Source: Modestobacter excelsi
GTDB taxonomy: Bacteria > Actinomycetota > Actinomycetes > Mycobacteriales > Geodermatophilaceae
Assembly: GCF_005930495.1 (NCBI RefSeq)
Contig: NZ_SJEX01000057.1
Span: 1 to 33,739 of the forward strand
Direction of reading: 5' to 3'
DNA: 33,739 bases
Below, piece after piece: positions 15,267 through 31,020 of the stretch (within the stretch, counting starts at the first letter, position 1; each line of letters starts with the position of its first letter). The notes under the pieces were generated by a model. That model had not been told where the DNA came from. It saw only the letters and a list, made by a program, of their open reading frames with translations, and did not search any database. The position numbers and the translations under genes were made by a program.

Positions 15267-15326
15267 AGAGGCAGCCCTTCCCCCGCACCGCTCGCAGGCT
15301 CGCGGCGGGCCCCTGCAAGGGACCTG
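15267..15326 (+). repeat. Hairpin repeat copy 1, after the acsA stop
   Basis: This is a divergent member of the ~58-base intergenic repeat family, in the same strand sense as copy 5. It begins directly after the acsA TGA. The closing stem CCCTT (15275-15279) pairs with AAGGG (15317-15321). The interior holds the family features CGCACCGCTCGC and GGGCCCCTG. It is a candidate transcription terminator. Confidence 0.6.
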
Positions 15327-15349
15327 ACCGCTCCCCACCTGACCACAGG

Positions 15350-15391
15350 ACGCTTGTGCTCTGCTCACGACGGTGAGCAGAGCACAAGCGT
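15350..15391. terminator. Perfect 19-bp hairpin between acsA and the HTH gene
   Basis: Bases 15350-15368 (starting ACGCTTGTGC) are the exact reverse complement of 15373-15391, with a GACG loop. This very stable hairpin sits in the 228-base gap between acsA and the downstream regulator. It could be a second terminator for acsA or an operator for the HTH protein. The lack of a T-run and the low GC of the stem compared with its surroundings make the operator reading as plausible. Confidence 0.55.
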
Positions 15392-15494
15392 GCGCAGGTG
15401 TGCCCTCGAGCGACGGACTTCCCCTGCCGCGGCCTGTCCACAGGACCGTGCGACGTGCCCCCGGACCCTCACGGAGGGCGGCATCCTCGGGCGG

Positions 15495-16193
15495 GTGGAC
15501 GACGAGGCCGCGGCCAGGAGACGACTCGGCGGCCTCGTCCGGCGGATCCGCCGGAGCGCCGACCTGTCCCAGCGCGAGCTGGCCCGTGCCCTCGGCGTGA
15601 GCACGGGAGCCGTCGCCCAGGCGGAGAGCGGCGCGCGGGACCTGCCGGCGACGGTGCTGACCCGTGCTGCCGAGCTGGCCGGGCTGCGGTTCGTGCTGGT
15701 GGACGCTGCGGGCGCGGAGGTCCCGGCCATGGACGACGCCGCCGTCCGGGACCGCGGCGGCCGGCGCTTCCCGGCCCACCTCGACCCGCGGCACGGGGAC
15801 GTGGGCTGGTGGCACGGTCCTGAGCGCTACAGCCGGGAGCGCCCTCAGTTCACGTTCGACCGCGACCGACGGGAGCGGGATGGTCTCCGGGCGGCGGTCG
15901 GCGTCCCGGCGGACCACCACGTGCCCCGCCCCGGGGACTCCCTGGAGGAGCGGGCGCGGCTTCGGGCCGAGGCGGCTGAGGCGGCGTGGCGCGCCCGCTG
16001 GCGGGAGGGCCTTGCGCAGCACCGGCTGCGGCTGCAGGAACGGCTCCGGCTCGGCCTGCCCCTCTTCTCGGACCCGACGTGCGCCTGCCCGCCGGCCTGC
16101 GACGACCTGCTCTTCGCCGACGGGCCCCTGACGGCACGGCAGCGGGCGGTCCCGCACGTCGAGAACTGCCCCTGCCTGTGCGACCTCGCCTGA
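15495..16193 (+). CDS. XRE-family HTH protein with cysteine-rich C-terminal tail
   Basis: The 232-residue protein is a likely DNA-binding regulator. Residues ~10-65 are a Cro/C1-type helix-turn-helix: LVRRIRRSADLSQRELARALGVS, then TGAVAQAESGARDLP. A middle part (~75-185) is rich in Arg, Asp, Trp and His, including HLDPRHGDVGWWHGPERY and a long Arg/Glu/Ala helix (EERARLRAEAAEAAWRARWREGL). The tail has seven possible metal ligands: Cys196, Cys198 and Cys202 in CACPPAC, then His221, Cys225, Cys227 and Cys229 in HVENCPCLC. I know no named family with this arrangement. The tail suggests zinc, iron-sulfur or redox sensing, as inference only. The GTG at 15495 lacks a strong ribosome site; earlier starts in the gap are possible. 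It interrupts otherwise conserved synteny after acsA. Confidence 0.72.
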   Translation: MDDEAAARRRLGGLVRRIRRSADLSQRELARALGVSTGAVAQAESGARDLPATVLTRAAELAGLRFVLVDAAGAEVPAMDDAAVRDRGGRRFPAHLDPRHGDVGWWHGPERYSRERPQFTFDRDRRERDGLRAAVGVPADHHVPRPGDSLEERARLRAEAAEAAWRARWREGLAQHRLRLQERLRLGLPLFSDPTCACPPACDDLLFADGPLTARQRAVPHVENCPCLCDLA

Positions 16194-16197
16194 GGAC

Positions 16198-16229
16198 CCG
16201 GGTCACCCGGCACCCTCCCGGTGACCCGG
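16198..16229. terminator. Hairpin after the HTH gene
   Basis: CCGGGTCACC (16198-16207) pairs perfectly with GGTGACCCGG (16220-16229) around a 12-base loop, starting five bases after the stop codon of the HTH gene. It is positioned as a terminator. The remaining bases to 16308 lead into the ribosome site of the next gene. Confidence 0.6.
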
Positions 16230-16308
16230 ACCGGCGGGCGTGGCGATCATGCGGCACGATCACCCGAGGAACGCGCCGATCCGGGCGCCGATCAGGGAGG
16301 AGCCACCC

Positions 16309-16812
16309 GTGGCCCACAGTGTCTCGACGACCCCGCTGACGGGCCGGTCTGCGGGCCCCGCCGAGCCCTCGGTGGGCACGCTCGCCAAGAGCGCCATGGC
16401 CGACATGTCCACGCTGATCCGCTCGGAGATCGAGCTGGCGAAGACCGAGGTGACCGTCTCGGCCAAGCGCGGCGGGATCGGCGCGGCTGCCTTCGCCGCC
16501 GCCGGGGTGATGCTGGCGTTCGCCGCGATCTTCTTCTTCATCGCGCTCGCCGAGTTCATCACCTGGCTGGGCCTGACGCGGTGGATCTCCTACCTCATCG
16601 TCTTCGCCCTCCTGGTCCTCATCGCCGCGGTCGCCGGGCTCATCGGCTACCGGCAGGTGAAGAAGATCAAGAAGCCGGAGAAGACCCTCGAGACGCTGTC
16701 GGACCTGCCCGACCTGGCCCGCCGCGAGGCCCCCGGCCAGCGGCAGCACGACCTGCCCGTCGTCCGCAACGGCCAGGTCGTCCGCCAGGACCCGCACGCC
16801 CGCCTGCGCTGA
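16309..16812 (+). CDS. Act-holin (phage holin family) membrane protein
   Basis: This 167-residue protein belongs to the actinobacterial 'phage holin family' group (DUF1469-like). These are ordinary chromosomal membrane proteins of unknown role despite the name. After a polar N-terminus, the segment TLAKSAMADMSTLIRSEIELAKTEVTVSAKRGGIG is the typical amphipathic region. Two hydrophobic hairpin helices follow (AAAFAAAGVMLAFAAIFFFIALAEFI and ISYLIVFALLVLIAAVAGLIGY), then a Lys-rich tail. GTG 16309 is chosen because GGGAGG lies eight bases upstream. It sits seven bases before the EphE-like hydrolase gene, as Rv3669 and Rv3670 do in M. tuberculosis, so the pair is probably co-transcribed. Confidence 0.88.
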   Translation: MAHSVSTTPLTGRSAGPAEPSVGTLAKSAMADMSTLIRSEIELAKTEVTVSAKRGGIGAAAFAAAGVMLAFAAIFFFIALAEFITWLGLTRWISYLIVFALLVLIAAVAGLIGYRQVKKIKKPEKTLETLSDLPDLARREAPGQRQHDLPVVRNGQVVRQDPHARLR

Positions 16813-16819
16813 TCCCTGC

Positions 16820-17749
16820 ATGATCGAACCCCAGGACGGGCAGCCGGACGCCACCAGCGTCCTGCTGCCCGGCCCCTGGGCGCACCGGGACGTCTCGGCC
16901 AACGGGGTGCGGCTGCACGCCGCCGAGGCCGGTGACGGGCCGCTGGTCCTGCTGCTGCACGGCTTCCCGCAGTTCTGGTGGACCTGGCGCCACCAGCTGG
17001 TCGGCCTGGCGGCGGCCGGGTTGCGCGTGGTCGCCCCGGACCTGCGCGGCTACGGCGCGAGCGACAAGCCCCCGCGCGGCTACGACCTGCCCACCGCCGC
17101 CGCCGACGCCGCCGCGGTGATCCGCGCGCTGGGCGAGACCGACGCGGTCGTCGTGGGCGCGGACTGGGGCGGGCTGGTGGGCTGGACCATGGCCGCGCTG
17201 CACCCGCGCAGCGTCCGCCGGCTGGTCGTCGTCGGCGCCGCGCACCCCCGGCGGTTGCGTACCTCCGTCGCCGACGCCCGCCAGCGGCGCGCGCTGGCCT
17301 ACGCGCTGCACTACCAGCTCCCCCGGCTCCCCGAGCGACGGCTCACCCGGGCCGACGACGACCCGGTGGCCGACCTCATGCGCCGCTGGGCAGGTCCCGA
17401 CTGGGTGCAGACCGGGGACTTCGCCGAGGCGGTGGCGCGCTACCGGGCGGCCTCCCGGATCCCGCAGGCCGCCTACGGCGCGATGGAGTACTACCGCTGG
17501 GCCGGCCGCTCCCAGCTGCGGCCCGACGGGCTGCGCTTCGCCCGCCGGATGGCCGCACCGGTCACCGCGCCCACATTGCAGCTGCACGGCGCCCTGGACC
17601 CCTACGTGCTGCCCGGCACCGCCCTCGGCTCCGACCGGTACGTCGCCGGGGCCTACGAGTGGCGCGAGCTGACCCGCGTCGGCCACTTCCCCCAGGAGGA
17701 GAGCCCCGCCGAGGTCACCGCCGCCATCGCCGCCTGGGCACGCCCCTAG
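16820..17749 (+). CDS. Alpha/beta hydrolase, EphE-like epoxide hydrolase
   Basis: The 309-residue protein has the alpha/beta-hydrolase fold with epoxide-hydrolase features. HGFPQFWWTWRHQL supplies the oxyanion-hole HGFP. The nucleophile elbow is GADWGGLVGW, with Asp as nucleophile as in epoxide hydrolases rather than Ser. RGYGASDKP is the usual cap-proximal segment, LHGALDPYV contains the charge-relay aspartate, and GHFPQEESP the catalytic histidine. Cap tyrosines likely come from AAYGAMEYYRW. It should convert epoxides to diols in the cytoplasm; a haloalkane dehalogenase is a less likely alternative. The gene corresponds to Rv3670 (ephE) in position. The ATG at 16820 lacks a good ribosome site, suggesting coupling to the gene seven bases upstream. 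Confidence 0.88.
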   Translation: MIEPQDGQPDATSVLLPGPWAHRDVSANGVRLHAAEAGDGPLVLLLHGFPQFWWTWRHQLVGLAAAGLRVVAPDLRGYGASDKPPRGYDLPTAAADAAAVIRALGETDAVVVGADWGGLVGWTMAALHPRSVRRLVVVGAAHPRRLRTSVADARQRRALAYALHYQLPRLPERRLTRADDDPVADLMRRWAGPDWVQTGDFAEAVARYRAASRIPQAAYGAMEYYRWAGRSQLRPDGLRFARRMAAPVTAPTLQLHGALDPYVLPGTALGSDRYVAGAYEWRELTRVGHFPQEESPAEVTAAIAAWARP

Positions 17750-17781
17750 CCGCAGGCCGGCATGCCGACGCGCCCGGCCGC

Positions 17782-17840
17782 GGCCCCGCTGCAGGGGCCC
17801 GCCGTGAGCTTGCGAGCGGTGGGGGGCAGCGGGGTCCTTC
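17782..17840 (-). repeat. Hairpin repeat copy 2, between the EphE-like gene and marP
   Basis: CCCCGCTG (17784-17791) is exactly complementary to CAGCGGGG (17827-17834), extended by a G-U and a G-C pair. The interior has CAGGGGCCCGCC and TGCGAGCGGTGGGGGG. Read on the minus strand, the repeat begins at the marP stop codon (17840-17842), so it is placed as the marP terminator. The 32 bases between the hydrolase stop and the repeat contain nothing else I recognise. Confidence 0.72.
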
Positions 17841-19021
17841 TATTCGCAGGGCCCGGTGTCGACGGCGGCGACGGCGGCGGTCCCGGAGGTCGCGGCGTCG
17901 GCGACCTCCGCCGCGGTGAGCGCGTAGCCGGTGTCCGGGTCGTCGATCGCGGAGGCGAAGACGACGCCGAGCACCGTGCCGTCGGTGGCCAGCAGCGGGC
18001 CGCCGGAGTTGCCTGCCCGCACCTGGCCGAACAGGGCGTAGACGTCACGCTGCACGGTGCGGGTGGAGCGGAAGTCCGGTCCGCTGATCTCGCCGCGGTC
18101 CCGGACCCGCGCCGGCCCCACGTACAGGCCGCCGCCGCCGGGGTAGCCCATCACGATCGCGTCCGCGCCGGTGTCCACCGGGCTCGGGGTGAAGCGCAGC
18201 GGCACCTCCGGCAGTCCCGGCACGGCGAGGACGGCGATGTCGGTCTCCTCGTCGACGTACACCGGCGTCGCGTCGTAGGCCTCGCCCTCGGCGGTGACCT
18301 GCGGGTCGGTGACCCCGGCGAGCACGTGGGCGTTGGTCATCACCCGCTGGTCGGCGAAGACGAAGCCGGAGCCGTCGATCTGCCGGGAGCAGGACGCCGC
18401 GATCCCCCGGATCTGCACCACCGAGCCCTGCACGCTGCCGACGACGGGACTGTTCAGCAGCGCCTGGTCCGGCGCGGGGACGTCCCGCGCCTCGGTCGGG
18501 GTGAGCGGGTCGAGCACGTCGGGCAGGCCCTGCCGGTCGATCGCCGTCCGCAGCGAGTCGTAGAGCGAGCGGACCTGCGGCGGCACGGCGTGGTCCACGA
18601 CCTGGACCAGCGCCGACTGCCGCACCTGCCCGGCCACGCCGGGGAACGGCGAGCTGGCCAGCGGGGTGGCCACCATCCACGCCACCAGCAGGACGGCGGC
18701 CGCCGACACGACCGCCCCGGCCACGGCGTCGACCATCTTCGCCGGCTCCCAGGTGACCCGGGTGCGCACCGCGCGGCCGATCACCCCGGCCAGCAGCTGA
18801 CCCAGCAGGGCGCCGGCCAGCACCACGACCAGGGCGACGAAGACCCGGGTGACCGAGGAGTCGGCCACGTCGTCGGCGAGCGGCCCGGACAGCTGGGCCC
18901 CGAGCACCGCGCCGCCGAAGAAGCCGACGAAGGAGGCCGCGGAGACGATCAGCCCCTGCCGGAAGCCGGACAGCGCGAAGACCAGTGCGAGGACGATCAG
19001 AGCCAGGTCGACGAGGGACAT
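17840..19021 (-). CDS. marP: MarP-type membrane serine protease (CvpA + trypsin-like domain)
   Basis: MarP is the periplasmic protease that M. tuberculosis (Rv3671c) needs for acid resistance. The 393 residues (397 there) comprise a CvpA-like part with four hydrophobic segments up to ~120, then a chymotrypsin-like domain. The triad is His232 in MTNAHVLAG, Asp261 in EETDIAVLA and Ser339 in RAGNSGGPLL. Cys211 and Cys392, the penultimate residue, match the pair that forms the activity-controlling disulfide in the mycobacterial enzyme. ATG 19021 overlaps the stop of the preceding cupredoxin gene by one base, so the two are coupled. A hairpin repeat abuts its stop codon. The gene is last in the nth operon. 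Confidence 0.94.
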   Translation of the reverse strand: MSLVDLALIVLALVFALSGFRQGLIVSAASFVGFFGGAVLGAQLSGPLADDVADSSVTRVFVALVVVLAGALLGQLLAGVIGRAVRTRVTWEPAKMVDAVAGAVVSAAAVLLVAWMVATPLASSPFPGVAGQVRQSALVQVVDHAVPPQVRSLYDSLRTAIDRQGLPDVLDPLTPTEARDVPAPDQALLNSPVVGSVQGSVVQIRGIAASCSRQIDGSGFVFADQRVMTNAHVLAGVTDPQVTAEGEAYDATPVYVDEETDIAVLAVPGLPEVPLRFTPSPVDTGADAIVMGYPGGGGLYVGPARVRDRGEISGPDFRSTRTVQRDVYALFGQVRAGNSGGPLLATDGTVLGVVFASAIDDPDTGYALTAAEVADAATSGTAAVAAVDTGPCE

Positions 19022-19509
19022 CACCCGCTCACCGTCATGGTGCCCACCTGCCCGAGCGCGGCGTGGAAGCTGCACTCGAAGGGGTAGTCGCCCGGCGCGC
19101 TGACGGTGAACTCGATGGTCTTGCCCTCCCCCGGCGCGAGCACCGGGATCTTCTCGGTGATCGGCGCGGGCCCGGTGCCCGCGGTGAACATGAAGTTGTG
19201 GGTCAGCTGGTCGGCGGTGTTCCGCACGGTCAGCCGGACCTGGCCGGGTGCGACGGTGAAGGTGTCCGGGGTGAAGACGTAGTCGTCGCCGGTCTCCAGG
19301 GTGATCTCCTGGAACCCGTCCGCCGCGGTGCTCACCGACCCGACGTCGCCGCCGGCCGTGCGGGTGGCCTCGGGCAGGGTGGGCTCGGAGTTGCCGCACC
19401 CGCTGAGGGTGACCAGGACGACCAGCAGCAGCCCGGCCAGCAGCCCGCCGAGCGGGGCCGGCCGGCCGCGTCCGTGTGCGCGCACAGCGCGGGACCGAGC
19501 CGGGCTCAT
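19021..19509 (-). CDS. Cupredoxin-domain lipoprotein
   Basis: This 162-residue exported copper-binding protein has an Arg-rich N-terminus, a hydrophobic signal segment (GGLLAGLLLVVLVTLSG) and lipobox LSGC, with Cys38 as the lipidation site. The mature part is a cupredoxin. The type I copper ligands are all visible: His104 in QLTHNFMF, Cys146 and His149 in FECSFHAALG, and Met158 in GTMTV. It should sit on the outer face of the membrane, carrying copper or electrons. It lies between the Nudix gene and marP with overlaps of four and one bases, a place with no counterpart in M. tuberculosis. Linkage to the TlpA-like thioredoxin in the same operon suggests envelope redox or copper chemistry, as inference. 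Confidence 0.9.
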   Translation of the reverse strand: MSPARSRAVRAHGRGRPAPLGGLLAGLLLVVLVTLSGCGNSEPTLPEATRTAGGDVGSVSTAADGFQEITLETGDDYVFTPDTFTVAPGQVRLTVRNTADQLTHNFMFTAGTGPAPITEKIPVLAPGEGKTIEFTVSAPGDYPFECSFHAALGQVGTMTVSG

Positions 19510-20273
19510 GGTCCGGGGACGGTACGCGGCGAACCTGGCCGGCCGGCGTCCTCGGCCACCGTCGGCGCGGCGCGGTCGGCGACGTCAGAGTCCACCGGCT
19601 CCTCCTCGGAGTCGGCAGGTGCTGCCGCCGCCAGGCCGCTGAGCGGCCGCACGTCGCCGGCATCCCACGGCAGGCTCAGCCCCGCGGCCTGCAGGACGGC
19701 GTCCAGCAGCCCGGCGGTGAAGCCCCAGACGACCATGCCGGCGACCCCGAACGCCGGCCCGACGTACCCGGCGGGGTGCCGCACCCGGAACCGGTTCGCC
19801 GGGTCCACCAGCTCGGCCAGCGGCACCCGGGCGACCTTCGCCACCTCGTGGGGGTCGGCGGTCGCGATCTCGCGCGGGTCGTCCCACCAGCCGACCACCG
19901 GGACGACGACGTTGTCCGACGGCCCGAGGAACAGCGCCGGCAGCGTCGTCAGCACCCGCACGCTCGCCGGGTCGACGCCGACCTCCTCCTGCGCCTCGCG
20001 CAGCGCGGTGCCGACCGGGTAGTCCTCCCCCGGGTCGGCACCGCCGCCGGGGAACGCAGGCTGCCCGGCGTGGCTGCGCAGGTGCGCAGACTTCTCGATG
20101 AGCAGCACGTCGGGGCCGGCGCGGCCGTGCCCGAAGAGGATGAGGACGGCGGAGCGGCGGGCGGTGGAGGAGGGCTCGCCGTGCCGGTGCCACAGCGGCA
20201 GCTCGCCGGCGTGCTCGACCAGCCGCTGCACGTGCTCGGGCAGCCCGGCGAGCTCGTCGGCGGGGAGCGTCAC
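19506..20273 (-). CDS. Nudix hydrolase, CoA pyrophosphatase type
   Basis: The 255-residue enzyme carries the CoA-specific extension of the Nudix fold: LLIEKSAHLRSHAGQPAFPGG (UPF0035-like) leading into the Nudix box GGGADPGEDYPVGTALREAQEEVGV near 76-100. Such enzymes cleave CoA or acyl-CoA to 3',5'-ADP and phosphopantetheine. A long acidic, Ala/Pro-rich tail (~215-255) looks disordered. It corresponds to Rv3672c. The GTG at 20273 overlaps the TlpA-like gene's stop as GTGA, and its own stop overlaps the cupredoxin ATG as ATGA, so it belongs to the coupled nth-to-marP operon. Substrate preference is inferred from the motif only. Confidence 0.9.
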   Translation of the reverse strand: MTLPADELAGLPEHVQRLVEHAGELPLWHRHGEPSSTARRSAVLILFGHGRAGPDVLLIEKSAHLRSHAGQPAFPGGGADPGEDYPVGTALREAQEEVGVDPASVRVLTTLPALFLGPSDNVVVPVVGWWDDPREIATADPHEVAKVARVPLAELVDPANRFRVRHPAGYVGPAFGVAGMVVWGFTAGLLDAVLQAAGLSLPWDAGDVRPLSGLAAAAPADSEEEPVDSDVADRAAPTVAEDAGRPGSPRTVPGP

Positions 20274-20860
20274 AGCTGCACGCCCAGGTGGTCGGCGACC
20301 AGCTGCTCGAACTCCGCCAACGAGTGCACCTGACCGACCTGCACGTAGGCGATGGAGCCGTCGGCGGCGAGGAAGACGGTGTGCGGCAGGGTGTTGACCC
20401 CGATCGCGGCCATCACCTCCCCCTCCCCGTCGAACGCGCTCGGGAAGCTCACCGCGGCGTCCTGCGCGAACGACGCCGTCTGCGTGGCGCCGTCCAGGCT
20501 GGCCACCCCGAGCACCCGCAGCTGCTCCCCGCCCGCGTCGGCCAGCTGCTGCACCAGCGGCAGCTCCTCCCGGCAGGGCCCGCACCAGCTGGCCCAGAGG
20601 TTCACCACGGTGGGCACACCGGGGGCGCGGCTGAGGTCGAGGGTGCCACCGCCGAAGCAGTCGAAGACCGTGGCGGGCAGGTCGCTGTCGGCCGCCGGCT
20701 GGTCGGGCTGCTCGGGGCAGGGCTGCATGTCGGTGTCGAGGGAGTCCAGGTCGCTGCTCGCCGGCGTCGGCGCGGGCTCCTCCGAGTCCGCCGACGTGCA
20801 GCCGGCCAGCAGCCCGAGCAGCAGGAGGAGGGCACCGGCGGCGCGGAGGGCGCGGCTCAC
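20270..20860 (-). CDS. TlpA-like thioredoxin-fold lipoprotein
   Basis: The 196-residue protein has a signal peptide with lipobox LLAGC (Cys21) and a 60-residue Ser/Asp/Pro-rich linker that contains two extra cysteines (Cys48, Cys68). A TlpA/ResA-like thioredoxin domain follows, with active site WCGPC (Cys93, Cys96) in [17 protein letters not shown] and the cis-proline loop [10 protein letters not shown]. It should act as an extracytoplasmic disulfide reductase, for example toward cytochrome c or copper proteins. It corresponds to Rv3673c. GTG 20860 overlaps the nth stop by four bases. A nearby target in the same operon could be the MarP disulfide or the cupredoxin, but nothing in the sequence proves that. 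Confidence 0.92.
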
Positions 20861-22191: not shown

Positions 22192-22352
22192 GCGCATGCA
22201 CACCGGGCCGCTCACCGGGAGGGGTGACCCCCTGGAGCCACTCAGAGTGGGCAGCCCGGTGACGGAGTGCACTGGTGAGGTCAGCCACAAGCCCTAGACT
22301 TACCTGGACGCGGGTCGCCATCGCACCCGTGAGGACGTTGCGAGAGGTGCAC
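22192..22352 (+). promoter_or_regulatory. crp promoter region with a CRP-like site
   Basis: A -10-like TAGACT lies at 22295-22300. Just upstream, GGTGA-GGTCAG-CCACA (22274-22289) matches the CRP consensus TGTGA-N6-TCACA at eight of ten half-site bases and would overlap the -35 position. The transcript would have a ~45-base leader before the GTG at 22353, with GAGAGG as ribosome site. Autoregulation by CRP is therefore plausible. Further upstream, CCACT and AGTGG form a small hairpin near 22238-22250. Confidence 0.45.
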
Positions 22353-23027
22353 GTGGACGAGGTCCTTGCCCAGTCCGGTCTCTTCCAGGGACTGTCGGAA
22401 GAGGCTGCCGAGCCGGTGGCCAGCTCGCTGGAGACGGTCACGCTGCCCCGGGGCCGCGTCGTCTTCAACGAGGGCGAGTCGGGCGACAGCCTGTACGTCG
22501 TCCTCTCCGGCAAGATCAAGCTGTCCCGGCGCGCGCCCGACGGGCGCGAGAACGTGCTGGCCGTGATGGGCCCGTCGGACCAGTTCGGCGAGCTGTCGGT
22601 CTTCGACCCCGGCCCGCGGACGGCGACCGCCACCGCCGTCACCGACGTCCGGCTGGCCAAGATGCCGAACAACATGCTGCGGCCGTGGATCACGGCCCAC
22701 CCGGAGATCGGCGAGCAGCTGCTGCGGGTGCTGGCCCGCCGGCTGCGGCGCACGAACGACTCCGTGGCCGACCTGATCTTCACCGACGTCCCCGGCCGGG
22801 TGGCCAAGGCGCTGCTGCAGATGGCCGACCGCTTCGGCAGCCGGGAGAGCGACGGCCTGCGGGTCAAGCACGACCTGACGCAGGAGGAGCTGGCCCAGCT
22901 GGTCGGCGCCTCCCGCGAGACGGTGAACAAGGCGCTGGCCGACTTCGTGCACCGCGGCTGGATCCAGCTGCAGGGCAAGTCCGTCGTCGTCCTCGACGAG
23001 GACCGCCTCCGCCGCCGCGCGCGGTGA
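22353..23027 (+). CDS. crp: CRP/FNR-family cAMP-responsive regulator
   Basis: This is the global cAMP receptor protein of actinobacteria. With GTG 22353 it has 224 residues, the same length as M. tuberculosis CRP (Rv3676), and it begins [14 protein letters not shown]. The cyclic-nucleotide pocket [19 protein letters not shown] places Glu80 and Arg89 as the cAMP-contacting residues. The long dimer helix [15 protein letters not shown] and the [27 protein letters not shown] (recognition helix [10 protein letters not shown]) follow. An earlier in-frame ATG at 22275 would add a non-homologous leader. The gene lies between the small membrane protein and a convergent Nudix gene, followed by a strong terminator. 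The upstream CRP-like site suggests self-control. Confidence 0.95.
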
Positions 23028-23040
23028 GAGAGCACTGACC

Positions 23041-23078
23041 GCGAGAGGCCCGGAACCGACAGGTCCCGGGCCTCTCGC
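23041..23078. terminator. Terminator of crp
   Basis: GCGAGAGGCCCGG (23041-23053) pairs perfectly over 13 bases with 23066-23078, and an inner ACC/GGT pair shortens the loop. It begins 14 bases after the crp stop and precedes GTTGT. This is a clear factor-independent hairpin. Confidence 0.8.
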
Positions 23079-23209
23079 GTTGTACGGGTACGGACCCGAG
23101 CGCAGCGAGGGTGGACCCGGGACGGGGCCCGGAGGGTCCCTCCCGGGGACACGGCCAACGGCTCAACGCACCTCGCACCGGCTCCTGGCCGCGGTGTGGT
23201 CCGTCAGGA
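23079..23209. other. Spacer between convergent crp and Nudix genes
   Basis: The region contains a second, bulged hairpin (CCCGGAGG at 23128-23135 facing CCTCCCGGG at 23139-23147) that could end transcription of the minus-strand Nudix gene. No coding frame looks real. Confidence 0.4.
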
Positions 23210-24656: not shown

Positions 24657-24697
24657 GACCCGACGCTAGCGCAGCCGGCCTGGCGACATGGTGGAAC

Positions 24698-24757
24698 GGC
24701 CCCCTCGCAGGGGCCCGCCGCGAGCGGAGCGAGCGGTGGGGGGCGAGGGGGTCCTTC
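24698..24757 (+). repeat. Hairpin repeat copy 3, in the DUF4177/arsA-like divergent region
   Basis: CCCCCTCGC (24700-24708) is exactly complementary to GCGAGGGGG (24743-24751), extended by G-U and G-C pairs. The interior CAGGGGCCCGCC and GCGAGCGGTGGGGGG match the other copies. Unlike the others, it does not follow a stop codon. It lies between two divergent starts, with its right arm directly upstream of a -10-like TAGGCT. Confidence 0.72.
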
Positions 24758-24763
24758 CACTCG

Positions 24764-24769: not shown

Positions 24770-24776
24770 CGCAGGG

Positions 24777-25778
24777 GTGACCCCTGCACCCGGAGAGCCG
24801 CTGCCCGTGCGGTGCCACGTCGTGACCGGCAAGGGCGGGACCGGGAAGACCACGGTCGCCGCCGCGCTGGCCCTGTCCCTCGCCGCCGACGGCCGGCACG
24901 TGCTGCTCGTCGAGACCGAGGGCCGGCAGGGCATCGCCCAGCTGTTCGACACCCCGCCGCTGCCCTACGAGGAGCGCCGGGTCGCCGTCGCCCGGGGCGG
25001 CGGTGAGGTGAAGGCCCTGGCCATCGACGTCGAGGCCGCCTTCCTCGAGTACCTGGACATGTTCTACAACCTCAAGCGGGCCGGCCGGGCGCTGCGCAAG
25101 ATGGGCGCCATCGACTTCGCCACGGCCATCGCACCCGGCCTGCGCGACGTGCTGCTGACCGGGAAGATCAAGGAGGCGGTCACCCGTCGCCACGACGGCC
25201 GGTTCGTCTACGACGCCGTCGTCGTCGACGCCCCGCCGACCGGTCGGATCACCCGGTTCCTCAACGTGACCGGTGAGGTCGCCGGGCTGGCCCGCTCCGG
25301 GCCGATCAAGGCGCAGAGCGACGGGGTGATGGCGGTGTTCCGGTCCGGGACGACGGCGGTGCACCTGGTGACCCTGCTGGAGGACATGCCCGTGCAGGAG
25401 ACCGCCGACGCGATCGCCGACCTGACCGCGGCCCGGCTGCCGGTCGGGTCGGTGATCGTCAACATGGCGGCCGAGCCGCTGCTGCCGGCGGCCAGCCTCA
25501 GCCGCACCGCCGAGGGCCGGCTCACCGGCGCGGACCTGCTGCCCGCGCTCACCGCGGCCTCGGTGCACGGTGCCGCGGAGGTCGCCGACGGGCTCGCCGC
25601 CGAGGCGGTCGAGCACGCGCAGCGCTGGGTGGCGCAGGACGCGCTGCGCGGGGACGTGGAGGCGCTGGGCCGGCCGGTGGTGGAGCTGCCGCTGTCGGTC
25701 ACCCCGATCGACCTGGGCACGCTGTTCGAGCTGGCCGAACGGCTCGAGGCCCTGCTGGCCACCGAGGCCGCCGCGTGA
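24777..25778 (+). CDS. ArsA/Get3-family ATPase, first of a pair
   Basis: The 333-residue P-loop ATPase belongs to the ArsA/GET3 group and corresponds to Rv3679. GKGGTGKTT at 18-26 is the deviant Walker A; VLLVETEGRQGIAQLFD and VVVDAPPTGRITRFLNV are the switch I/A-loop and Walker B/switch II-like segments. The C-terminus LPLSVTPIDLGTLFELAERLEAL is typical of the family. No arsenite-ligand cysteine cluster is evident, and arsA/arsB neighbours are absent, so an 'arsenic pump ATPase' label would mislead. Actinobacterial pairs form two-subunit ATPases whose cargo is unclear. GTG 24777 is supported by the -10 seven bases upstream and by the N-terminus. The next gene overlaps by four bases. Confidence 0.92.
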   Translation: MTPAPGEPLPVRCHVVTGKGGTGKTTVAAALALSLAADGRHVLLVETEGRQGIAQLFDTPPLPYEERRVAVARGGGEVKALAIDVEAAFLEYLDMFYNLKRAGRALRKMGAIDFATAIAPGLRDVLLTGKIKEAVTRRHDGRFVYDAVVVDAPPTGRITRFLNVTGEVAGLARSGPIKAQSDGVMAVFRSGTTAVHLVTLLEDMPVQETADAIADLTAARLPVGSVIVNMAAEPLLPAASLSRTAEGRLTGADLLPALTAASVHGAAEVADGLAAEAVEHAQRWVAQDALRGDVEALGRPVVELPLSVTPIDLGTLFELAERLEALLATEAAA

Positions 25779-26989
25779 CCGCGCCCCGACGGCCGGCGGT
25801 GGCGCCGTCCCTGGACCTCGCCGCCCTGGTGGCGGACCCGGAGAGCCGGATCATCGTGTGCTGCGGCTCCGGCGGGGTGGGCAAGACGACGACCTCGGCG
25901 GCGCTGGCCCTGGCGGCGGCCGAGGCCGGCCGGCAGGTCGTCGTGCTCACCATCGACCCTGCGCGCCGGCTGGCCCAGTCGCTGGGCCTGGTGGAGCTGG
26001 ACAACGAGCCGCGGGTGGTCGAGACGCCCGGTGCCCCGGGCGAGCTCTCGGCGATGATGCTGGACATGAAGCGGACGTTCGACGACGTCGTGTCCGCGCA
26101 CTCGACGCCCGAGCGCGCCGAGACGATCTTCGCCAACCCCTTCTACCAGGCGCTGTCCTCGTCCTTCGCCGGGACGCAGGAGTACATGGCGATGGAGAAG
26201 CTCGGGCAGCTGCGGAGCAGCGACCGCTGGGACCTGATCATCGTCGACACCCCGCCGTCCCGGTCGGCGCTGGACTTCCTGGACGCACCGAACCGGATGA
26301 GCCGGTTCCTCGACGGCACCATGATCCGGCTGCTCACCGCGCCGGCCCGGGCCGGGGGGCGGGCCGGGGTGCGGATCGTCGGCGTCGGCTTCTCGATCTT
26401 CACCCGGATCATCAGCAAGATCCTGGGCGGCCAGCTGCTGGGCGACATCTCCGCGTTCGTCTCCGCCCTGGACACCATGTTCGGCGGCTTCCGTGAGCGC
26501 GCGACGGCGACGTACGAGCTGCTCCGCCAGCCGGGGACGTCGTTCGTCGTGGTCGCCGCCCCGGAGCCGGACGCCCTGCGCGAGGCGTCCTACTTCGTGG
26601 ACCGGCTGTCCACCGAGGGGATGCCCCTCGCCGGCCTGGTCATCAACCGCACCCACCCGCCGGCGACGACGGCGCTGACGGCGACCCGCGCCGAGGCCGC
26701 CGCCGAGGCGGTCGCCGAGGCCGGCGGCAAGGGCGCGAAACTGGCCGCCGGGGCGCTGCGGGTGCACGCCGAGCGGATGACGCTGGCCACCCGGGAGCAG
26801 CGGCTCGCCGACCGGTTCACCAGCGCGCACCCCGAGGTGGAGGTGCGCACCGTGCCGGCCGCCGCCGGCGACGTGCACGACCTCGAGGGGCTGCGGGCGA
26901 TGGGCGAGGCGCTGCTGGCCGCCGAGGACGACACCGGCACGGGCACCCCGCGCAGCCGCGTCCTGCCGCTCCGGCCGCAGGCGGGCTGA
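25775..26989 (+). CDS. ArsA/Get3-family ATPase, second of a pair
   Basis: The 404-residue partner ATPase corresponds to Rv3680. The P-loop is GSGGVGKTT (31-39), followed by VVVLTIDPARRLAQSLGL, the canonical ArsA/Get3 segment, and LIIVDTPPSRSALDFLDAPNRMSRFLD with the switch II aspartate. A hydrophobic, glycine-rich stretch (ISKILGGQLLGDISAFVSALDTMFGGF) lies where Get3 binds client helices, so a role in handling hydrophobic segments is conceivable but unproven. The start GTG 25775 overlaps the first ATPase's stop as GTGA, which implies equimolar synthesis and probably a hetero-oligomer. The tail is acidic then basic. After it comes a 102-base gap to the penicillin-binding protein, with no WhiB gene. 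Confidence 0.93.
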   Translation: MTAPRRPAVAPSLDLAALVADPESRIIVCCGSGGVGKTTTSAALALAAAEAGRQVVVLTIDPARRLAQSLGLVELDNEPRVVETPGAPGELSAMMLDMKRTFDDVVSAHSTPERAETIFANPFYQALSSSFAGTQEYMAMEKLGQLRSSDRWDLIIVDTPPSRSALDFLDAPNRMSRFLDGTMIRLLTAPARAGGRAGVRIVGVGFSIFTRIISKILGGQLLGDISAFVSALDTMFGGFRERATATYELLRQPGTSFVVVAAPEPDALREASYFVDRLSTEGMPLAGLVINRTHPPATTALTATRAEAAAEAVAEAGGKGAKLAAGALRVHAERMTLATREQRLADRFTSAHPEVEVRTVPAAAGDVHDLEGLRAMGEALLAAEDDTGTGTPRSRVLPLRPQAG

Positions 26990-27091
26990 GCCGCCTCCCG
27001 CGAGAGGCTCGCGCGCGACCCGCCCGGGCCACCGCGCGTCGGGCGTCGAGGCGGGGCGCCCGGGCCCGCCGAACAGGTACCTTGGCCTGCG
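26990..27091 (+). promoter_or_regulatory. Spacer with hairpin and leaderless-type promoter of the penicillin-binding protein
   Basis: A small hairpin (CGCGAG-AGG-CTCGCG, 26999-27013) follows the ATPase stop. TACCTT at 27078-27083 is a TAnnnT-type -10 ending eight bases before the ATG at 27092, so the mRNA probably has little or no leader. No ribosome site precedes the ATG, which agrees with this. Confidence 0.45.
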
Positions 27092-29473
27092 ATGTCCGAG
27101 TCTGCGCTCCTCCGTCGCAATGCCCTGGTGAAGCTGGCCGGGGCGATCGTCGTGGCCGGTCTGCTGGTCGCCGCCATGCTGCTGCCCTTCGTCGGCGGGA
27201 CCGGGCTGGTGGCCCGGAACTCCTCGACGCTGCTCGACGCGCTGCCGGTCGAGCTGACCGACAAGACGCCCAGCGGGAACACCAAGGTGCTGGCCGTCGA
27301 CGGGTCGGAGATCACCGAGTTCTTCGCGAACAACCGCACGCCGGTGACGCCGGACCAGATCTCCGACGTCATGAAGCAGGCGATCGTCGACATCGAGGAC
27401 TCGCGCTTCTACGAGCACAACGGCCTGGACGTGCAGGGCACGCTGCGCGCGCTGGCGAAGAACGTCGCCGCCGGCGGTGTCGAGGAGGGCGGCTCGACGC
27501 TGACCCAGCAGCTGGTCAAGCAGACGCTGCTGCAGACGGCGTCCACCCCGGAGGAGCAGCAGGCGGCCACCGCGCAGACCGTGGGCCGCAAGCTCAAGGA
27601 GGCCCGGCTGGCGCTGGCCCTGGAGCAGACCTACTCCAAGGACGAGATCCTCACCCGCTACCTCAACATCGCCTACTTCGGTGAGGGCGCCTACGGCATC
27701 CAGGCCGCCGCGCAGAAGTACTTCAGCGTCGACGCCGCCGACCTGACGCTCCCGCAGGCCTCGGTGCTCGCCGGCCTGGTGCAGAGCCCGACCAACGACG
27801 ACCCGATCGTCAACCCCGACGCCGGCCAGAAGCGGCGCAACCAGGTGCTGCAGCGCATGCACGACCTCGGGCACATCACCGACCAGGAGCTGGCCGACGT
27901 CTCGGCCACCCCGATCCCCATCGCCGAGGGCGGCAGCCCGCCCAACGGCTGCATCGACGCCACGGTCGGCGGGTTCTTCTGCGACTACATGTACAACTAC
28001 CTGACCGGCACCCTCGGGATCAGCGCGGACGCGATCAAGACCGGCGGCTGGACCATCCAGACGACGCTGCGCCCGGACATCCAGACCTCCGGTGACCAGG
28101 CCGTGCTGAACACCCTCCCGATGGGCGGCGGCAACGACCTGGCCGGCGTGTTCACCGCCGTCGAGCCCGGCACCGGGCACGTGCTGGCGATGAGCGTCAA
28201 CCGCCGCTACGGCTGCGACGCCTACGAGTGCGAGTCGGTCAACCTGAACACCGCGACCAGTGCCGGCGCCGGGTCGACCTACAAGGTCTTCACCGCCGCC
28301 GCCGCGCTCGCCCAGGGCTTCGGCTCGCACTACACGATCACCACCCCGCAGCCCTACAGCTCCAAGGTGTTCAAGAAGAACGGCGGGACGACCGGCGCCC
28401 CGTACACGGTCAGCAACGTCGGCGACAACTACCCGGACACGATGGACATGACCGCGGCCCTGGTCGAGTCCTCCAACACCTACTTCGTGGGCCTGGAGGA
28501 CGCGCTGGGCAGCGTCGAGCCGCCGGTGCGCACCGCGCAGGCCATGGGGTTGCACTCCATCGACGCCACCGCCGACCAGATCATCGCCGAGAAGCGCGGC
28601 TCGTTCACCCTCGGCGTCGACGCGACCAGCCCGCTGTACCTGGCCAGCGCGTACTCCACCCTGGCCGCCAACGGCACCCAGTGCGAGCCGACGCCCGTGA
28701 TCTCGATCGTGGACTCGACGGGCGAGCCGGTCACCAAGGACGACGGCACGCCCTACGTCAGCGGGAACACCTGCAAGGAGAACGCCATCCCGGCCGGCGT
28801 GGCGACCACGCTGAACCAGATGATGATCGGCGACACCGTCACCGGCACCGCGACCCGGGCGGCCATCCCCGGCCACCAGATCGCCGGCAAGACCGGCACC
28901 ATCCAGGACAACAAGTCGGCGACGTTCGTGGGCTCGACGCCGAAGTACACGGTCAGCGTGATGGTCTTCAACCCGAAGTCGCAGCAGGACGTCGGCGGCT
29001 ACGGCGGCAACAAGCCCGCGACGATCTACCACGACGCGATGCTGCCGATCCTGTCCAAGGAGCCCTCGGTGCCCTTCCCGCCGGCCGACCCGCTCGTGGT
29101 CTCCGGCAACCGGCCGACCGTCCCCAGCTGCTCCTCGGTCAGCTCCTGCCAGGACGCGCTCACCCAGGCGGGCTTCCGGCCGGTCGTCTCCGAGGTGAGC
29201 AGCTCCCGCTCCTCGGGCAGCTTCCTCGGCACCAGCCCCCGCTCGGGCACCCAGGCCACCGTCGGCCAGGTCGTCACGATCCAGGTGAGCAACGGGTCCG
29301 GCTACCGCACCCCCTCACCGACCACCCGGCCGCGGTACACGCCGACGCCGGAGAGCTCGACGCCCAGCACCCCTGATCCCCCGGCGCAGGACTCGCCGCC
29401 GGCCGACCAGCAGCCCGGCGCCCCGGAGTTCACCATGCCGGACTGGAACGGCGACGGAGACCCGGGCCCCTGA
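27092..29473 (+). CDS. Bifunctional class A penicillin-binding protein with PASTA domain (PonA2 type)
   Basis: This enzyme polymerises and cross-links peptidoglycan at the outer face of the membrane. The 793 residues contain an N-terminal anchor helix (~14-34) and a GT51 glycosyltransferase with Glu102 in VDIEDSRFYEHNG and GGSTLTQQLVKQ at 133-144. The transpeptidase has STYK (395-398, catalytic Ser395), SSN (460-462) and KTGT (600-603). One PASTA domain follows (~683-744), then a Pro/Ser/Thr-rich tail. It corresponds to ponA2 (Rv3682). Cysteines at 287/297, 375/380, 531/561 and 680/686 may form disulfides. Its stop codon is followed without a gap by hairpin repeat copy 4. WhiB4, which precedes ponA2 in mycobacteria, is absent. 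Confidence 0.95.
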   Translation: MSESALLRRNALVKLAGAIVVAGLLVAAMLLPFVGGTGLVARNSSTLLDALPVELTDKTPSGNTKVLAVDGSEITEFFANNRTPVTPDQISDVMKQAIVDIEDSRFYEHNGLDVQGTLRALAKNVAAGGVEEGGSTLTQQLVKQTLLQTASTPEEQQAATAQTVGRKLKEARLALALEQTYSKDEILTRYLNIAYFGEGAYGIQAAAQKYFSVDAADLTLPQASVLAGLVQSPTNDDPIVNPDAGQKRRNQVLQRMHDLGHITDQELADVSATPIPIAEGGSPPNGCIDATVGGFFCDYMYNYLTGTLGISADAIKTGGWTIQTTLRPDIQTSGDQAVLNTLPMGGGNDLAGVFTAVEPGTGHVLAMSVNRRYGCDAYECESVNLNTATSAGAGSTYKVFTAAAALAQGFGSHYTITTPQPYSSKVFKKNGGTTGAPYTVSNVGDNYPDTMDMTAALVESSNTYFVGLEDALGSVEPPVRTAQAMGLHSIDATADQIIAEKRGSFTLGVDATSPLYLASAYSTLAANGTQCEPTPVISIVDSTGEPVTKDDGTPYVSGNTCKENAIPAGVATTLNQMMIGDTVTGTATRAAIPGHQIAGKTGTIQDNKSATFVGSTPKYTVSVMVFNPKSQQDVGGYGGNKPATIYHDAMLPILSKEPSVPFPPADPLVVSGNRPTVPSCSSVSSCQDALTQAGFRPVVSEVSSSRSSGSFLGTSPRSGTQATVGQVVTIQVSNGSGYRTPSPTTRPRYTPTPESSTPSTPDPPAQDSPPADQQPGAPEFTMPDWNGDGDPGP

Positions 29474-29531
29474 GGCCCCGTTCAGGGGCCCGCGCTGAGC
29501 CTGCGAAGCGTGGGGGGGAACGGGGTCCTTC
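29474..29531. repeat. Hairpin repeat copy 4, filling the gap between the PBP and GatB/YqeY genes
   Basis: The element starts at the base after the PBP TGA and ends on the TGA (minus strand) of the GatB/YqeY gene, so it is the entire intergenic region of a convergent pair. CCCCGTTC (29476-29483) is exactly complementary to GAACGGGG (29518-29525), plus G-U and G-C pairs. A smaller alternative hairpin, GGCCCC-GTTCA-GGGGCC, lies in its left end. It is best explained as a bidirectional terminator. Confidence 0.78.
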
Positions 29532-29982
29532 ACGCCAGCTGTCGGCGCACCTCAGCCGCGACGCGGCCGCCCTCGGCCCGGCCGGCCACCGCGCCCTGCA
29601 CCGCGCCCATGACCTTGCCCATGTCCCTCATCCCCGATGCCCCGGTGCGGGTGACGACGTCGGCGACGATCGCGGCCAGGTCGGCGTCGGCCAGCTGGGC
29701 CGGCAGGTAGGCGGCGATCACGCCCTCCTCCGCCCGCTCCCGCTCGGCCTGCTCGGCGCGCCCGGCGTCGGCGAAGGCCTCGGCCGCCTCACGGCGCTTC
29801 TTCGCCTCCCGGCGGAGCACCACCATCACGTCGTCGTCGCTGAGCTGACGGGCCTCCTTGCCGGCCACCTCCTCGGCGGAGACGGCGGAGAGCACCATCC
29901 TCAGGGTGGCGGTGCTCAGCTCGTCGCGGCCCTTCATCGCGGTGGTCAGGTCGGTACGGAGTCGGTCCTTCAGTCCAGGCAC
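29530..29982 (-). CDS. GatB/YqeY domain protein
   Basis: The 150-residue protein is the stand-alone form of the YqeY domain found at the C-terminus of GatB, the tRNA-binding helical module of the amidotransferase. It begins VPGLKDRLRTDLTTAMKGRD, followed by the conserved TLRMVLSAVSAEEV, VLRREAKKRREAAEAF, YLPAQLADADLAAIV and GMRDMGKVMGAVQGAVAGRA blocks. The function of free YqeY proteins is not firmly known; tRNA or amidotransferase association is the usual suggestion. GTG 29982 starts at the conserved N-terminus; a longer frame upstream is non-homologous. The gene diverges from the metallophosphoesterase across 66 bases and ends at hairpin repeat copy 4. Confidence 0.92.
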   Translation of the reverse strand: MPGLKDRLRTDLTTAMKGRDELSTATLRMVLSAVSAEEVAGKEARQLSDDDVMVVLRREAKKRREAAEAFADAGRAEQAERERAEEGVIAAYLPAQLADADLAAIVADVVTRTGASGMRDMGKVMGAVQGAVAGRAEGGRVAAEVRRQLA

Positions 29983-30036
29983 GCCGGAGAGCCTGCCACC
30001 TCCGCCCGCACCGGGACGACGGAGTTCCCGCGCCCG

Positions 30037-30042
30037 TAGGCT
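30037..30042 (+). promoter_or_regulatory. -10 of a probably leaderless metallophosphoesterase transcript
   Basis: TAGGCT ends six bases before the ATG at 30049. The 14 bases CGTAGGCTCGCAGG (30035-30048) are identical to those before the ArsA-like operon at 24762-24775. Confidence 0.55.
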
Positions 30043-30048
30043 CGCAGG

Positions 30049-30963
30049 ATGCGTGCGAGAACCGCCGTCCCTGCTGCTGTGGTGGCCTCCGGTGCCGCCA
30101 CGGTGGCCTACGCGAGCCTCATCGAGCGCAGCCGGTGGACGCTGCGCCGGTTCGACGTCCCCGTCCTGCCACCGGGCTCGGCCCCGCTGACCGTGCTGCA
30201 GCTGTCGGACCTGCACATGACCGCAGGGCAGCGCAGCAAGCAGGAGTGGGTGGCCGGGCTGGCCGACCTGCAGCCCGACCTGGTCCTCACGACCGGCGAC
30301 AACCTCGCCGGGATGGACGCCGTCCCGCCGACGCTCCGCGCGCTGGACCCGCTGATGGAGCTCCCCGGCGCGTTCGTGCTGGCCAGCAACGACTACTACG
30401 CGCCCCGGCCGAAGAACCCGCTCAAGTACTTCAAGACCGACCACGAGCGGGTGCTCGGCGACGTCCTCCCCTGGCGCGACCTGCGGGACGGCATGACCGC
30501 CCGCGGCTGGCTCGACCTGACCAACGCCACGGGCACGCTCACGGTGGCCGGGACGCGGATCGCCTTCGCCGGTCTGGACGACCCGCACCTGCAGCTGGAC
30601 CGCTACGACGACGTCGCCGGGCCCGCCGACCCCGACGCCGACCTGCGGGTCGGCCTGGTGCACTCCCCTGAGCCGCGGGTGCTCGACCGGTTCACCGCCG
30701 ACGGCTACGACCTGCTGCTCTGCGGGCACACCCACGGCGGCCAGCTGCGGGTGCCCTTCTACGGCGCCCTGGTCACCAACTGCGGCATCGACCGGCAGCA
30801 CGTCCGCTGGCTGCACCGCTGGGCGCAACCCTCCCCCGGGCAACCGAACGGCACCTGGCTGCACGTCTCCGCCGGACTGGGCACCAGCCCCTACGCCCCG
30901 TACCGGCTGGCCTGCCCGCCGGAGGCGACGCTGCTGACCCTCACCGCCCGGGCCGCCTGCTGA
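30049..30963 (+). CDS. Membrane-associated calcineurin-like metallophosphoesterase
   Basis: The 304-residue protein begins with a hydrophobic, weak signal/anchor segment (AVPAAVVASGAATVAYASL) and continues with a YkuE-like metallophosphoesterase fold. Metal-site motifs are SDLHM (Asp54, His56), TTGDN (Asp84, Asn85), a variant ASNDYY in place of the usual GNHD (Asn114, Asp115), VHSPEP, and CGHTHGGQL near 225-235. The missing histidine in the GNHD block alters the phosphate-contacting residue and is also typical of this actinobacterial subgroup as I recall it. It corresponds to Rv3683 in the conserved order. The substrate could be a lipid or phosphodiester at the membrane. The stop is immediately followed by hairpin repeat copy 5. 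Confidence 0.9.
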   Translation: MRARTAVPAAVVASGAATVAYASLIERSRWTLRRFDVPVLPPGSAPLTVLQLSDLHMTAGQRSKQEWVAGLADLQPDLVLTTGDNLAGMDAVPPTLRALDPLMELPGAFVLASNDYYAPRPKNPLKYFKTDHERVLGDVLPWRDLRDGMTARGWLDLTNATGTLTVAGTRIAFAGLDDPHLQLDRYDDVAGPADPDADLRVGLVHSPEPRVLDRFTADGYDLLLCGHTHGGQLRVPFYGALVTNCGIDRQHVRWLHRWAQPSPGQPNGTWLHVSAGLGTSPYAPYRLACPPEATLLTLTARAAC

Positions 30964-31020
30964 AGGACCCACTCGCCCCCCGGCACTCGCGAGCCCGTAC
31001 CGGGCCCCTGCGAGGGGGCC
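30963..31020 (+). repeat. Hairpin repeat copy 5, after the metallophosphoesterase stop
   Basis: The repeat begins at the last base of the stop codon with AAGGACCC. CTCGC (30972-30976) pairs with GCGAG (31010-31014); after an A/G mismatch, CCC pairs with GGG. The interior holds GGCACTCGCGAGCC, GGGCCCCTG and the closing GGGGGCC. It lies between the phosphoesterase and the tRNA promoter, as a terminator would. Confidence 0.7.

What the first reader, a model, noticed from the sequence alone, without database searches (positions are those of the whole stretch)
15267..31020. Five-copy family of hairpin repeats with compensatory stem changes
Copies at 15267, 17782, 24698, 29474 and 30963 share a ~58-base plan: GGCCCC + variable 4-5 bases + CAGGGGCCCGCCG + GAGC.TGCGAGCGGTGGGGGG + complement of the variable part + GGGGTCCTTC. 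The variable stem reads GCTG/CAGC in copy 2, CTCGC/GCGAG in copies 3 and 5, GTTC/GAAC in copy 4, and CCCTT/AAGGG in copy 1. Sequence varies while pairing is kept, which is covariation and so evidence for a selected structure rather than simple duplication. Such a family would probably occur many times in the genome.
Basis: seen in the sequence. Interest (0 to 1): 0.78.

Follow-up and report, generated by a model that had tools for sequence, protein, structure and literature searches.

The report
Hairpin repeats hugging stop codons
This soil bacterium and most sampled members of its family carry a dispersed, copied DNA hairpin that usually sits flush against the stop codons of genes, and its stems change in matched pairs so that one particular strand can still fold.

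Summary
All five copies exist (two on the minus strand) and belong to a 61-nt hairpin family: at least 150 copies in the 5.26-Mb genome, found in 101 of 112 genomes searched of its family (Geodermatophilaceae). Covariation holds on 113 distinct own-genome copies and on 118 from named genomes (0 of 500 shuffles reach any measure).

Two further results. (1) Position: the GAAGGACC end abuts a stop codon within a few nt in 84 of 111 own copies (random placement 3.8%) and in 81 of 109 placeable copies from named genomes (4.1%). (2) Strand: wobbles are G·T rather than A·C on one strand (145 to 11), also where only the other strand belongs to a known mRNA.

Near-identical copies share only the element, and sites are gained, lost and swapped between relatives. 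I read it as a non-autonomous, REP-like mobile hairpin with an unusual stop-codon address; no Y1 transposase was found in 20 genomes. A terminator role is possible (one canonical terminator was replaced by it) but not shown: element-bearing genes carry a second hairpin as often as others. New variant of a known kind.

The parts
15266..15326 (-). copy 1 (orientation A), degenerate; abuts the acetyl-CoA synthetase-like stop codon
   Evidence: R1 match 73.8 bits (the model was built from it); fold z +0.87; dd -1
17781..17841 (+). copy 2, between two convergent genes; abuts TAG of the - strand gene
   Evidence: 85.9 bits; fold z -2.39; dd -2; the element in 13 orthologous loci of relatives with re-paired stems
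24697..24758 (+). copy 3 (GGA-loop variant), in a divergent gap, not at a called stop codon
   Evidence: 77.2 bits; fold z -3.01; of 12 relatives aligned, present in G007 and G014, absent in 10
24682..24696 (+). long-form 5' extension of copy 3 (consensus GGTGACGTGCTGGAAC, here 3 mismatches)
   Evidence: read; mismatch count; ends of the long form
29473..29532 (+). copy 4, between two convergent genes; abuts TGA of the YqeY-like - gene
   Evidence: 74.4 bits; fold z -2.27; dd -3; Pfam YqeY and Transgly/Transpeptidase neighbours
30961..31021 (-). copy 5, after the calcineurin-like phosphoesterase gene, before tRNA-Pro
   Evidence: 79.7 bits; dd -3; fold z -1.22; tRNA
15264..15266 (+). stop codon TGA abutted by copy 1
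17840..17842 (-). stop codon TAG abutted by copy 2 (its G is the first base of GAAGGACC)
29530..29532 (-). stop codon TGA abutted by copy 4
30961..30963 (+). stop codon TGA abutted by copy 5
23040..23079 (+). canonical terminator-like hairpin (18-bp arms, one mismatch, loop of 4) at the site where relative G006 has the element instead
   Evidence: comparison of own, G006, G007, G008; coordinates

Best explanation
It is a family of non-autonomous, mobile palindromic repeats that works like REP/MITE elements. SHOWN: one 61-nt folded unit, with a discrete long form extended by 16 nt, sharp ends and at least 150 copies in this genome; stems kept by paired changes; wobbles kept as strand-A pairs whichever way the neighbouring gene runs; presence/absence, subtype exchange, deletion derivatives and tandem arrays among relatives; the GAAGGACC end set flush against stop codons in about three quarters of copies. 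INFERRED: the element spreads as a single strand (strand-A DNA, or an RNA copy) whose hairpin is the recognised form, by an unidentified machinery, and enters or survives mainly directly behind stop codons, where it harms no coding sequence. Once there it adds a strong 3'-end hairpin and can sometimes take over from a terminator.
For: Copying: nearest-neighbour identity of the 111 own copies has median 90% against a mean pairwise 75%. Six inspected near-identical pairs are alike from at or just before GAAGGACC to GGCC(G) or ...CACC; upstream identity is 0.22-0.53 and beyond the ends 0.27-0.36. Sharp ends: apart from the stop codon before GAAGGACC, information content falls to background outside the element in 62 copies with the extension and 200 without. 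Turnover: of 8 sites compared with three close relatives some lack it, some hold a different stem subtype, some a deletion form; copy 3 is absent from 10 of 12 relatives aligned. Tandem units. Strand: G.T 145 against A.C 11, without the column where G.T is the family state 63 against 11; named genomes 158 against 9, without that column 51 against 9. In tandem copies, where only strand B is in the known mRNA, 59 against 6, without that column 23 against 6. Unpaired conserved positions show no such bias: G>A 35/1199, C>T 21/551. Anchoring: 84/111 against 3.8%, 81/109 against 4.1%.
Against: No mobiliser found: Y1_Tnp 0 of 20 genomes, no integron integrase over cut-off in 17; other transposase families were not tested. 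No target-site duplication was shown, and at three compared sites the element stands in place of older sequence rather than being simply inserted. Copy 2's site is occupied in 13 orthologous loci of relatives, longer than a purely parasitic copy would need. Some anchoring could reflect selection for a 3'-end function. The search model was built on strand A, which slightly favours hits with G.U over A.C. About a quarter of copies are not anchored, and 9 of 53 tandem copies lie the other way round.
Confidence: 0.6

Rival explanations
1. The element is a family of (bidirectional) intrinsic transcription terminators or 3'-end stabilisers, selected at RNA level; sequence likeness reflects shared origin plus protein or polymerase preference.
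For: It sits at gene ends: 7 of 111 own copies and 6 of 115 named-genome copies are in divergent gaps. Both strands fold better than shuffles: A mean -37.8 against -30.6, B -31.5 against -25.6 kcal/mol; better than the shuffle mean in 107 and 101 of 111 copies. In G006 it stands where own, G007 and G008 keep a canonical terminator-like hairpin, and at copy 4's place G006 and G011 have unrelated hairpins.
Against: Genes with the element carry another strong hairpin as often as genes without: tandem 7/46 against 33/241, p 0.82; convergent 3/7 against 31/78, p 1.0 (a smaller count had leaned the other way). At one site a terminator-like hairpin follows in all four species, with or without the element (L001:15960). 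Neither strand ends in a U-tract. The B strand, the mRNA of the abutted gene, keeps A.C mismatches in P2.
Confidence: 0.25
2. Strand-A hairpins stop antisense transcription exactly at the 3' border of the abutted gene (an insulator).
For: The A-strand fold is the one kept; its 3' tail UCCUUC ends next to the abutted stop codon; A folds more stably than B.
Against: No A-strand transcript is known in tandem sites; pairing is no better in convergent sites, where A is transcribed, than in tandem ones (P2 393/407 against 344/351 paired).
Confidence: 0.08
3. Classic REP elements moved by a RAYT (Y1, IS200/IS605-like) transposase.
For: Copy number, extragenic 3' placement, compensatory stems and arrays fit the REP/REPIN descriptions (passages of PMC3116915 and PMC2817692). 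A Coxiella REP in a table of PMC2817692 holds the same apical GAGCTTGCGA stretch (passage).
Against: 0 of 20 genomes have a PF01797 match at E<=0.001, while the control rings in 5 of 14 named genomes. The consensus has no GTAG foot and is not two inverted REPs.
Confidence: 0.04
4. The paired stem changes come from palindrome-correcting template switches, not from selection on the fold.
For: Blocks of several pairs differ together between orthologs while P2 and flanks stay alike (L001:15109, own against G007).
Against: Template switching would make perfect pairs on both strands; the one-sided G.U excess and the conserved G.U of P2 need a folded strand A. Loops stay conserved.
Confidence: 0.03

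Closest known systems
REP / REPIN elements with RAYT transposases
   Same: Many dispersed extragenic hairpins, compensatory stems, arrays, 3'-end placement; one apical-loop stretch shared with a Coxiella REP (passages).
   Different: No Y1 transposase found in 20 genomes, no GTAG foot, two nested stems in one unit. REPIN doublets are described as randomly distributed in extragenic space (abstract), while this family is flush with stop codons.
MIRU (mycobacterial interspersed repetitive units)
   Same: Actinobacterial (class recalled), apparently mobile, short, placed at an exact codon landmark of genes; tandem forms.
   Different: MIRUs are described as inserting at start codons with a coupled ORF (passage of PMC12548453). 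This family sits at stop codons and is a covarying hairpin.
Uptake-signal hairpin terminators of Neisseria and Pasteurellaceae
   Same: A repeated sequence family co-opted at many gene ends (passages of PMC1852404).
   Different: There the short word is fixed and the hairpin comes from two complementary instances. Here the stem word is free and loops and ends are fixed.
Integron attC sites
   Same: Single-strand fold, variable stem, placed just behind an ORF (recalled).
   Different: No integron integrase over cut-off in 17 genomes; copies scattered over many contigs.

Membership tests
REP/REPIN (RAYT-mobilised) | Y1 (IS200/IS605-like) RAYT gene in the genome | tested here: not met
   PF01797 0 of 20 family genomes at E<=0.001; control rings in 5 of 14 named genomes
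REP/REPIN (RAYT-mobilised) | abundant extragenic palindromic repeat | tested here: met
   at least 150 copies; 9 of 111 overlap a called gene by more than 20 nt
REP/REPIN (RAYT-mobilised) | compensatory changes in the stem | tested here: met
REP/REPIN (RAYT-mobilised) | GTAG-like foot, inverted REP doublet | tested here: not met
   consensus ends GAAGGACC and GGCCG or CACC; single unit with two nested stems
Transposon-type MITE | terminal inverted repeats | tested here: inconclusive
   long form reads TGACGAAGG...CACGTCACC, 5-bp TGACG/CGTCA only if the stop codon is counted in
Transposon-type MITE | target-site duplication at filled against empty sites | tested here: inconclusive
   none seen in the compared sites; replacements and internal deletions blur the edges
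Intrinsic terminator | stable GC hairpin behind a gene | tested here: met
   (window copies 1 and 5 fold weakly)
Intrinsic terminator | U-tract after the hairpin | tested here: not met
   UCCUUC on A, GUUCC on B in the long form
Intrinsic terminator | replaces, rather than adds to, other terminators | tested here: not met
   7/46 against 33/241 tandem genes carry another hairpin, though the site at 23040-23079 shows one replacement in G006
Intrinsic terminator | transcript 3' ends at the element | not testable with these tools
   no RNA data
Integron attC | integron integrase | tested here: not met
   TIGR02249 over cut-off in 0 of 17 genomes; weaker matches in all 17, as in all 14 control genomes
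Known Rfam RNA | match at gathering score | tested here: not met
   window: tRNA only; one best copy at E<=10 gives only matches far below gathering score

The most novel reading that the evidence does not exclude
A mobile hairpin whose address is the translation stop codon itself: it enters directly behind TGA, TAG or TAA in roughly their background proportions, so it reads the function (a terminating ribosome or a 3' mRNA border) rather than a DNA word. It uses a strand-A folded intermediate and no known transposase.
Probability: 0.22. Interest if true: 0.88.

Novelty: new variant of a known kind. Interest (0 to 1): 0.66.

Why it matters
A repeat present in most sampled members of a bacterial family that sits on stop codons with near-nucleotide precision is a natural, testable case of how a short element finds, or is tolerated at, one kind of genomic landmark without a recognised transposase. 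It also supplies a large set of gene ends (own genome, relatives with, without, or with a different hairpin) on which the role of 3' hairpins lacking U-tracts in high-GC actinobacteria can be measured.

Tried and rejected
Rejected or weakened: RAYT-driven REP (no Y1_Tnp in 20 genomes); integron attC; known Rfam RNA; TGA as a mere DNA target word (stop usage at anchored genes TGA 71, TAG 11, TAA 4 against 422, 57, 7 elsewhere; named genomes TGA 72, TAG 9, TAA 0 at anchored genes against 533, 61, 6 in all genes); mutational strand bias as the cause of the G·T excess; terminator substitution as a general rule (against my own smaller count, which had looked mildly favourable); virus origin (exact core pattern in 0 viral contigs). 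A post-stop GAAGGACC signal independent of the hairpin was considered: 8 of 430 genes without a called element have such a word, and several of the nine tails printed look like remnants. The search for a target-site duplication led nowhere.

Literature: full-text searches; among the rows listed (in some searches fewer than the papers found) no title or abstract start describes this family. Passages only were seen of PMC2734929, PMC3116915, PMC2267715, PMC1852404, PMC2817692, PMC12548453 and PMC1590033.

Rows dropped: of 114 matches the three weakest were left out and the two weakest; searches used all. Of 125 those shorter than 51 nt were left out (115 kept, 109 with a gene called on the anchoring side). 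Gene ends come from my own codon-usage script, not from a published gene caller.
Full report
WHAT IS THERE. Written in orientation A they read GG-CCCC-nnnn-CAGGGKCCC-G-CC..GAGC-NN-GCGA..GG-T-GGG-GGG-n'n'n'n'-GGGG-T-CC-TTC. Copies 2, 3 and 4 lie on the + strand, copies 1 and 5 on the - strand. The fold has an outer stem P1 (10 modelled pairs), an internal loop with mostly conserved CAGGG and GGG/GAG, an inner stem P2 (8 pairs) and a mostly conserved apical GAGC-NN-GCGA. Copies 2-4 fold better than dinucleotide shuffles on strand A (z -2.27 to -3.01); copy 5 is weak and copy 1 is degenerate.

NUMBER. A pattern of the left half occurs 41 times in the own genome, 0 times when read backwards. Model R1, from the five copies, scored 150 candidates of the own genome and all 150 passed, E from 1e-21 to 1.7e-7. 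In 582 kb (40 fetched stretches plus the window) R1 finds 114 matches, of which 112 have E below 1e-5. 17 of those 112 were missing from the list, so the genome total is above 150 and roughly up to 300 (likely high).

COVARIATION. On A3 (113 distinct rows) 96.7% of cells pair, 17 of 18 pairs show two-sided changes, 303 cells; no shuffle of 500 reaches any measure and sliding the partner destroys the signal. On a set from named genomes (80 loci, A5, 118 distinct rows) the values are 98.3%, 11 of 18 pairs and 216 cells, again 0 of 500. A5 loci were found with an exact pattern that fixes part of the stems, which lowers variation there. Among 12 distinct orthologs of copy 2 (13 loci, own not counted) at one and the same gene end, 208 of 213 cells pair and 11 of 18 pairs changed on both sides.

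WHICH STRAND FOLDS. On strand A the departures from Watson-Crick include G·T (145 cells) far more than A·C (11); leaving out the one column where G·T is the family state gives 63 against 11. Named genomes: 158 against 9, or 51 against 9 without that column. In copies standing in tandem gene rows with the abutted gene's mRNA on strand B it is 59 against 6 (23 against 6 without the column); in convergent rows 68 against 5 (30 against 5). Conserved unpaired positions show no matching bias (G>A 35 of 1199, C>T 21 of 551). The kept fold is therefore that of strand A, whether or not a known gene transcript covers strand A. One caution: the search model was built on strand A and slightly favours such pairs.

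POSITION. Genes were called with my own codon-usage script; the window genes beside copies 1, 2, 4 and 5 have Pfam support. In 84 of 111 own copies the GAAGGACC end lies from 5 nt inside to 2 nt beyond a stop codon of a gene on strand B; random placement in intergenic gaps of at least 60 nt gives 3.8%. In the named loci it is 81 of 109 against 4.1%. Usual spellings are TGA-N-GAAGGACC (49 and 59 copies at offset 0, one of the 49 with TAA), T-GAAGGACC and TA-GAAGGACC. TGA, TAG and TAA are used at near-background rates (71, 11, 4 at anchored genes; 422, 57, 7 elsewhere). Of the 111 copies 51 stand between convergent genes, 53 in tandem rows and 7 in divergent gaps; 44 of the 53 tandem copies have strand B along the genes. 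In the window four of five copies are anchored; copy 3 is not.

HISTORY. Against close relatives (G006, G007, G008) orthologous sites show presence, absence, deletion derivatives and exchange of stem subtype. Examples: L001:15960 is filled in own and G007, empty in G006 and G008; L001:15109 has a different but fully paired P1 in G007 and G008, with P2 and flanks little changed. Copy 3 is absent from 10 of 12 relatives aligned. Copy 4's place holds, in G008, an element turned round behind the other gene's stop codon. At the end of the gene 22347..23027 own, G007 and G008 carry a canonical hairpin (own 23040-23079, one mismatch), while G006 has the element in its place. Six near-identical pairs at unrelated loci match only across the element, and, apart from the stop codon, conservation falls to background outside a short form (GAAGGACC...GGCCG) and a long form (...GGCCGTTCCAGCACGTCACC); 28 of 111 own copies have the extension with at most 5 mismatches. 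Tandem arrays occur: about 45-54 bp and 66 bp in a Blastococcus contig.

SPREAD. 101 of 112 family genomes have it, 9 of 12 genera; 86 of the 101 show 40 or more matches where only 48 candidates were scored. Without a match at that threshold are G039 and G067, both near complete, and nine genomes of genera g22-g24, all in 190 or more contigs; G045, G055 and G114 have 4, 2 and 5. In the order sample (the tool's order) 79 of 397 genomes match: 74 of the 75 family genomes seen in it, and 5 others with one or two matches each, two of them weak; only 13 candidates per genome were scored. No exact match of the core in viral contigs.

MECHANISM. The best account is a non-autonomous mobile hairpin that works like a REP element. 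Copying, sharp ends, turnover, arrays and the strand-A fold independent of host transcription are shown; a strand-A single-stranded intermediate and an unknown mobiliser are inferred. REP membership fails on the transposase: no Y1_Tnp in 20 genomes; other transposase families were not tested. The REPIN paper describes doublets as randomly distributed in extragenic space (abstract), unlike here. A table in the RAYT paper shows a Coxiella REP with the same GAGCTTGCGA apical stretch (passage), which may be convergence.

TERMINATOR QUESTION. For: gene-end position, stable hairpins on both strands, replacement of a terminator-like hairpin in G006, other hairpins at copy 4's place in G006 and G011. 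Against: after the element a second strong hairpin is as common as after genes without it (tandem 7 of 46 against 33 of 241; convergent 3 of 7 against 31 of 78), no U-tract, and a terminator-like hairpin beside the site L001:15960 in all four species, filled or empty. I leave termination as a possible side effect, not the reason for the family.

UNEXPLAINED. Why the address is the stop codon to within a few nt; why the position directly behind the full stop codon is nearly unused (1 of 84 and 1 of 81 anchored copies, at dd -1) while its neighbours are common; and what moves it.

Noticed in passing
window 873-944 and 4759-4830: A second repeat family, core TGAGCGAGCTNGCGAGCTC, 82% alike over 72 nt, starting at the end of the upstream ORF (ATGA overlap at 4759). 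5 exact cores in the own genome, present in 8 of 13 genomes searched, all 8 in the same genus, with 77-bp tandem spacing in two relatives. It looks MIRU-like (recalled).
   Followed up: partly
window 15350-15391: Perfect hairpin (19-bp arms, loop of 4) about 84 nt behind the acetyl-CoA synthetase-like stop codon, downstream of the degenerate copy 1.
   Followed up: no
L054:524-780 (G009); L149 and L171 (Modestobacter): Arrays of about 46-61-bp units beside a full element; the extra units in L149 and L171 match only model positions 6-52, without the outer ends; those in L054 have a CACGTG-containing spacer.
   Followed up: partly
L169:4449-4641 (Blastococcus sp. TBT05-19): Three identical full elements at 66-bp spacing run to the end of the locus, probably the contig end and a collapsed longer array.
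   Followed up: no
G039, G067, G045, G055, G114: Family members with none or very few copies beside sisters of the same genus with many: natural comparisons for finding the mobiliser.
   Followed up: no
G164 (family f2), G173 and G248 (family f10): One or two strong matches each (best E 3e-15 to 1e-18) outside the family; transfer or contamination not decided.
   Followed up: no
L072 (G007), site of own L001:11827: TGAGGAAGGACCCC kept behind the stop codon but followed by an unrelated long hairpin: the stop-side end can outlive the rest of the element.
   Followed up: partly
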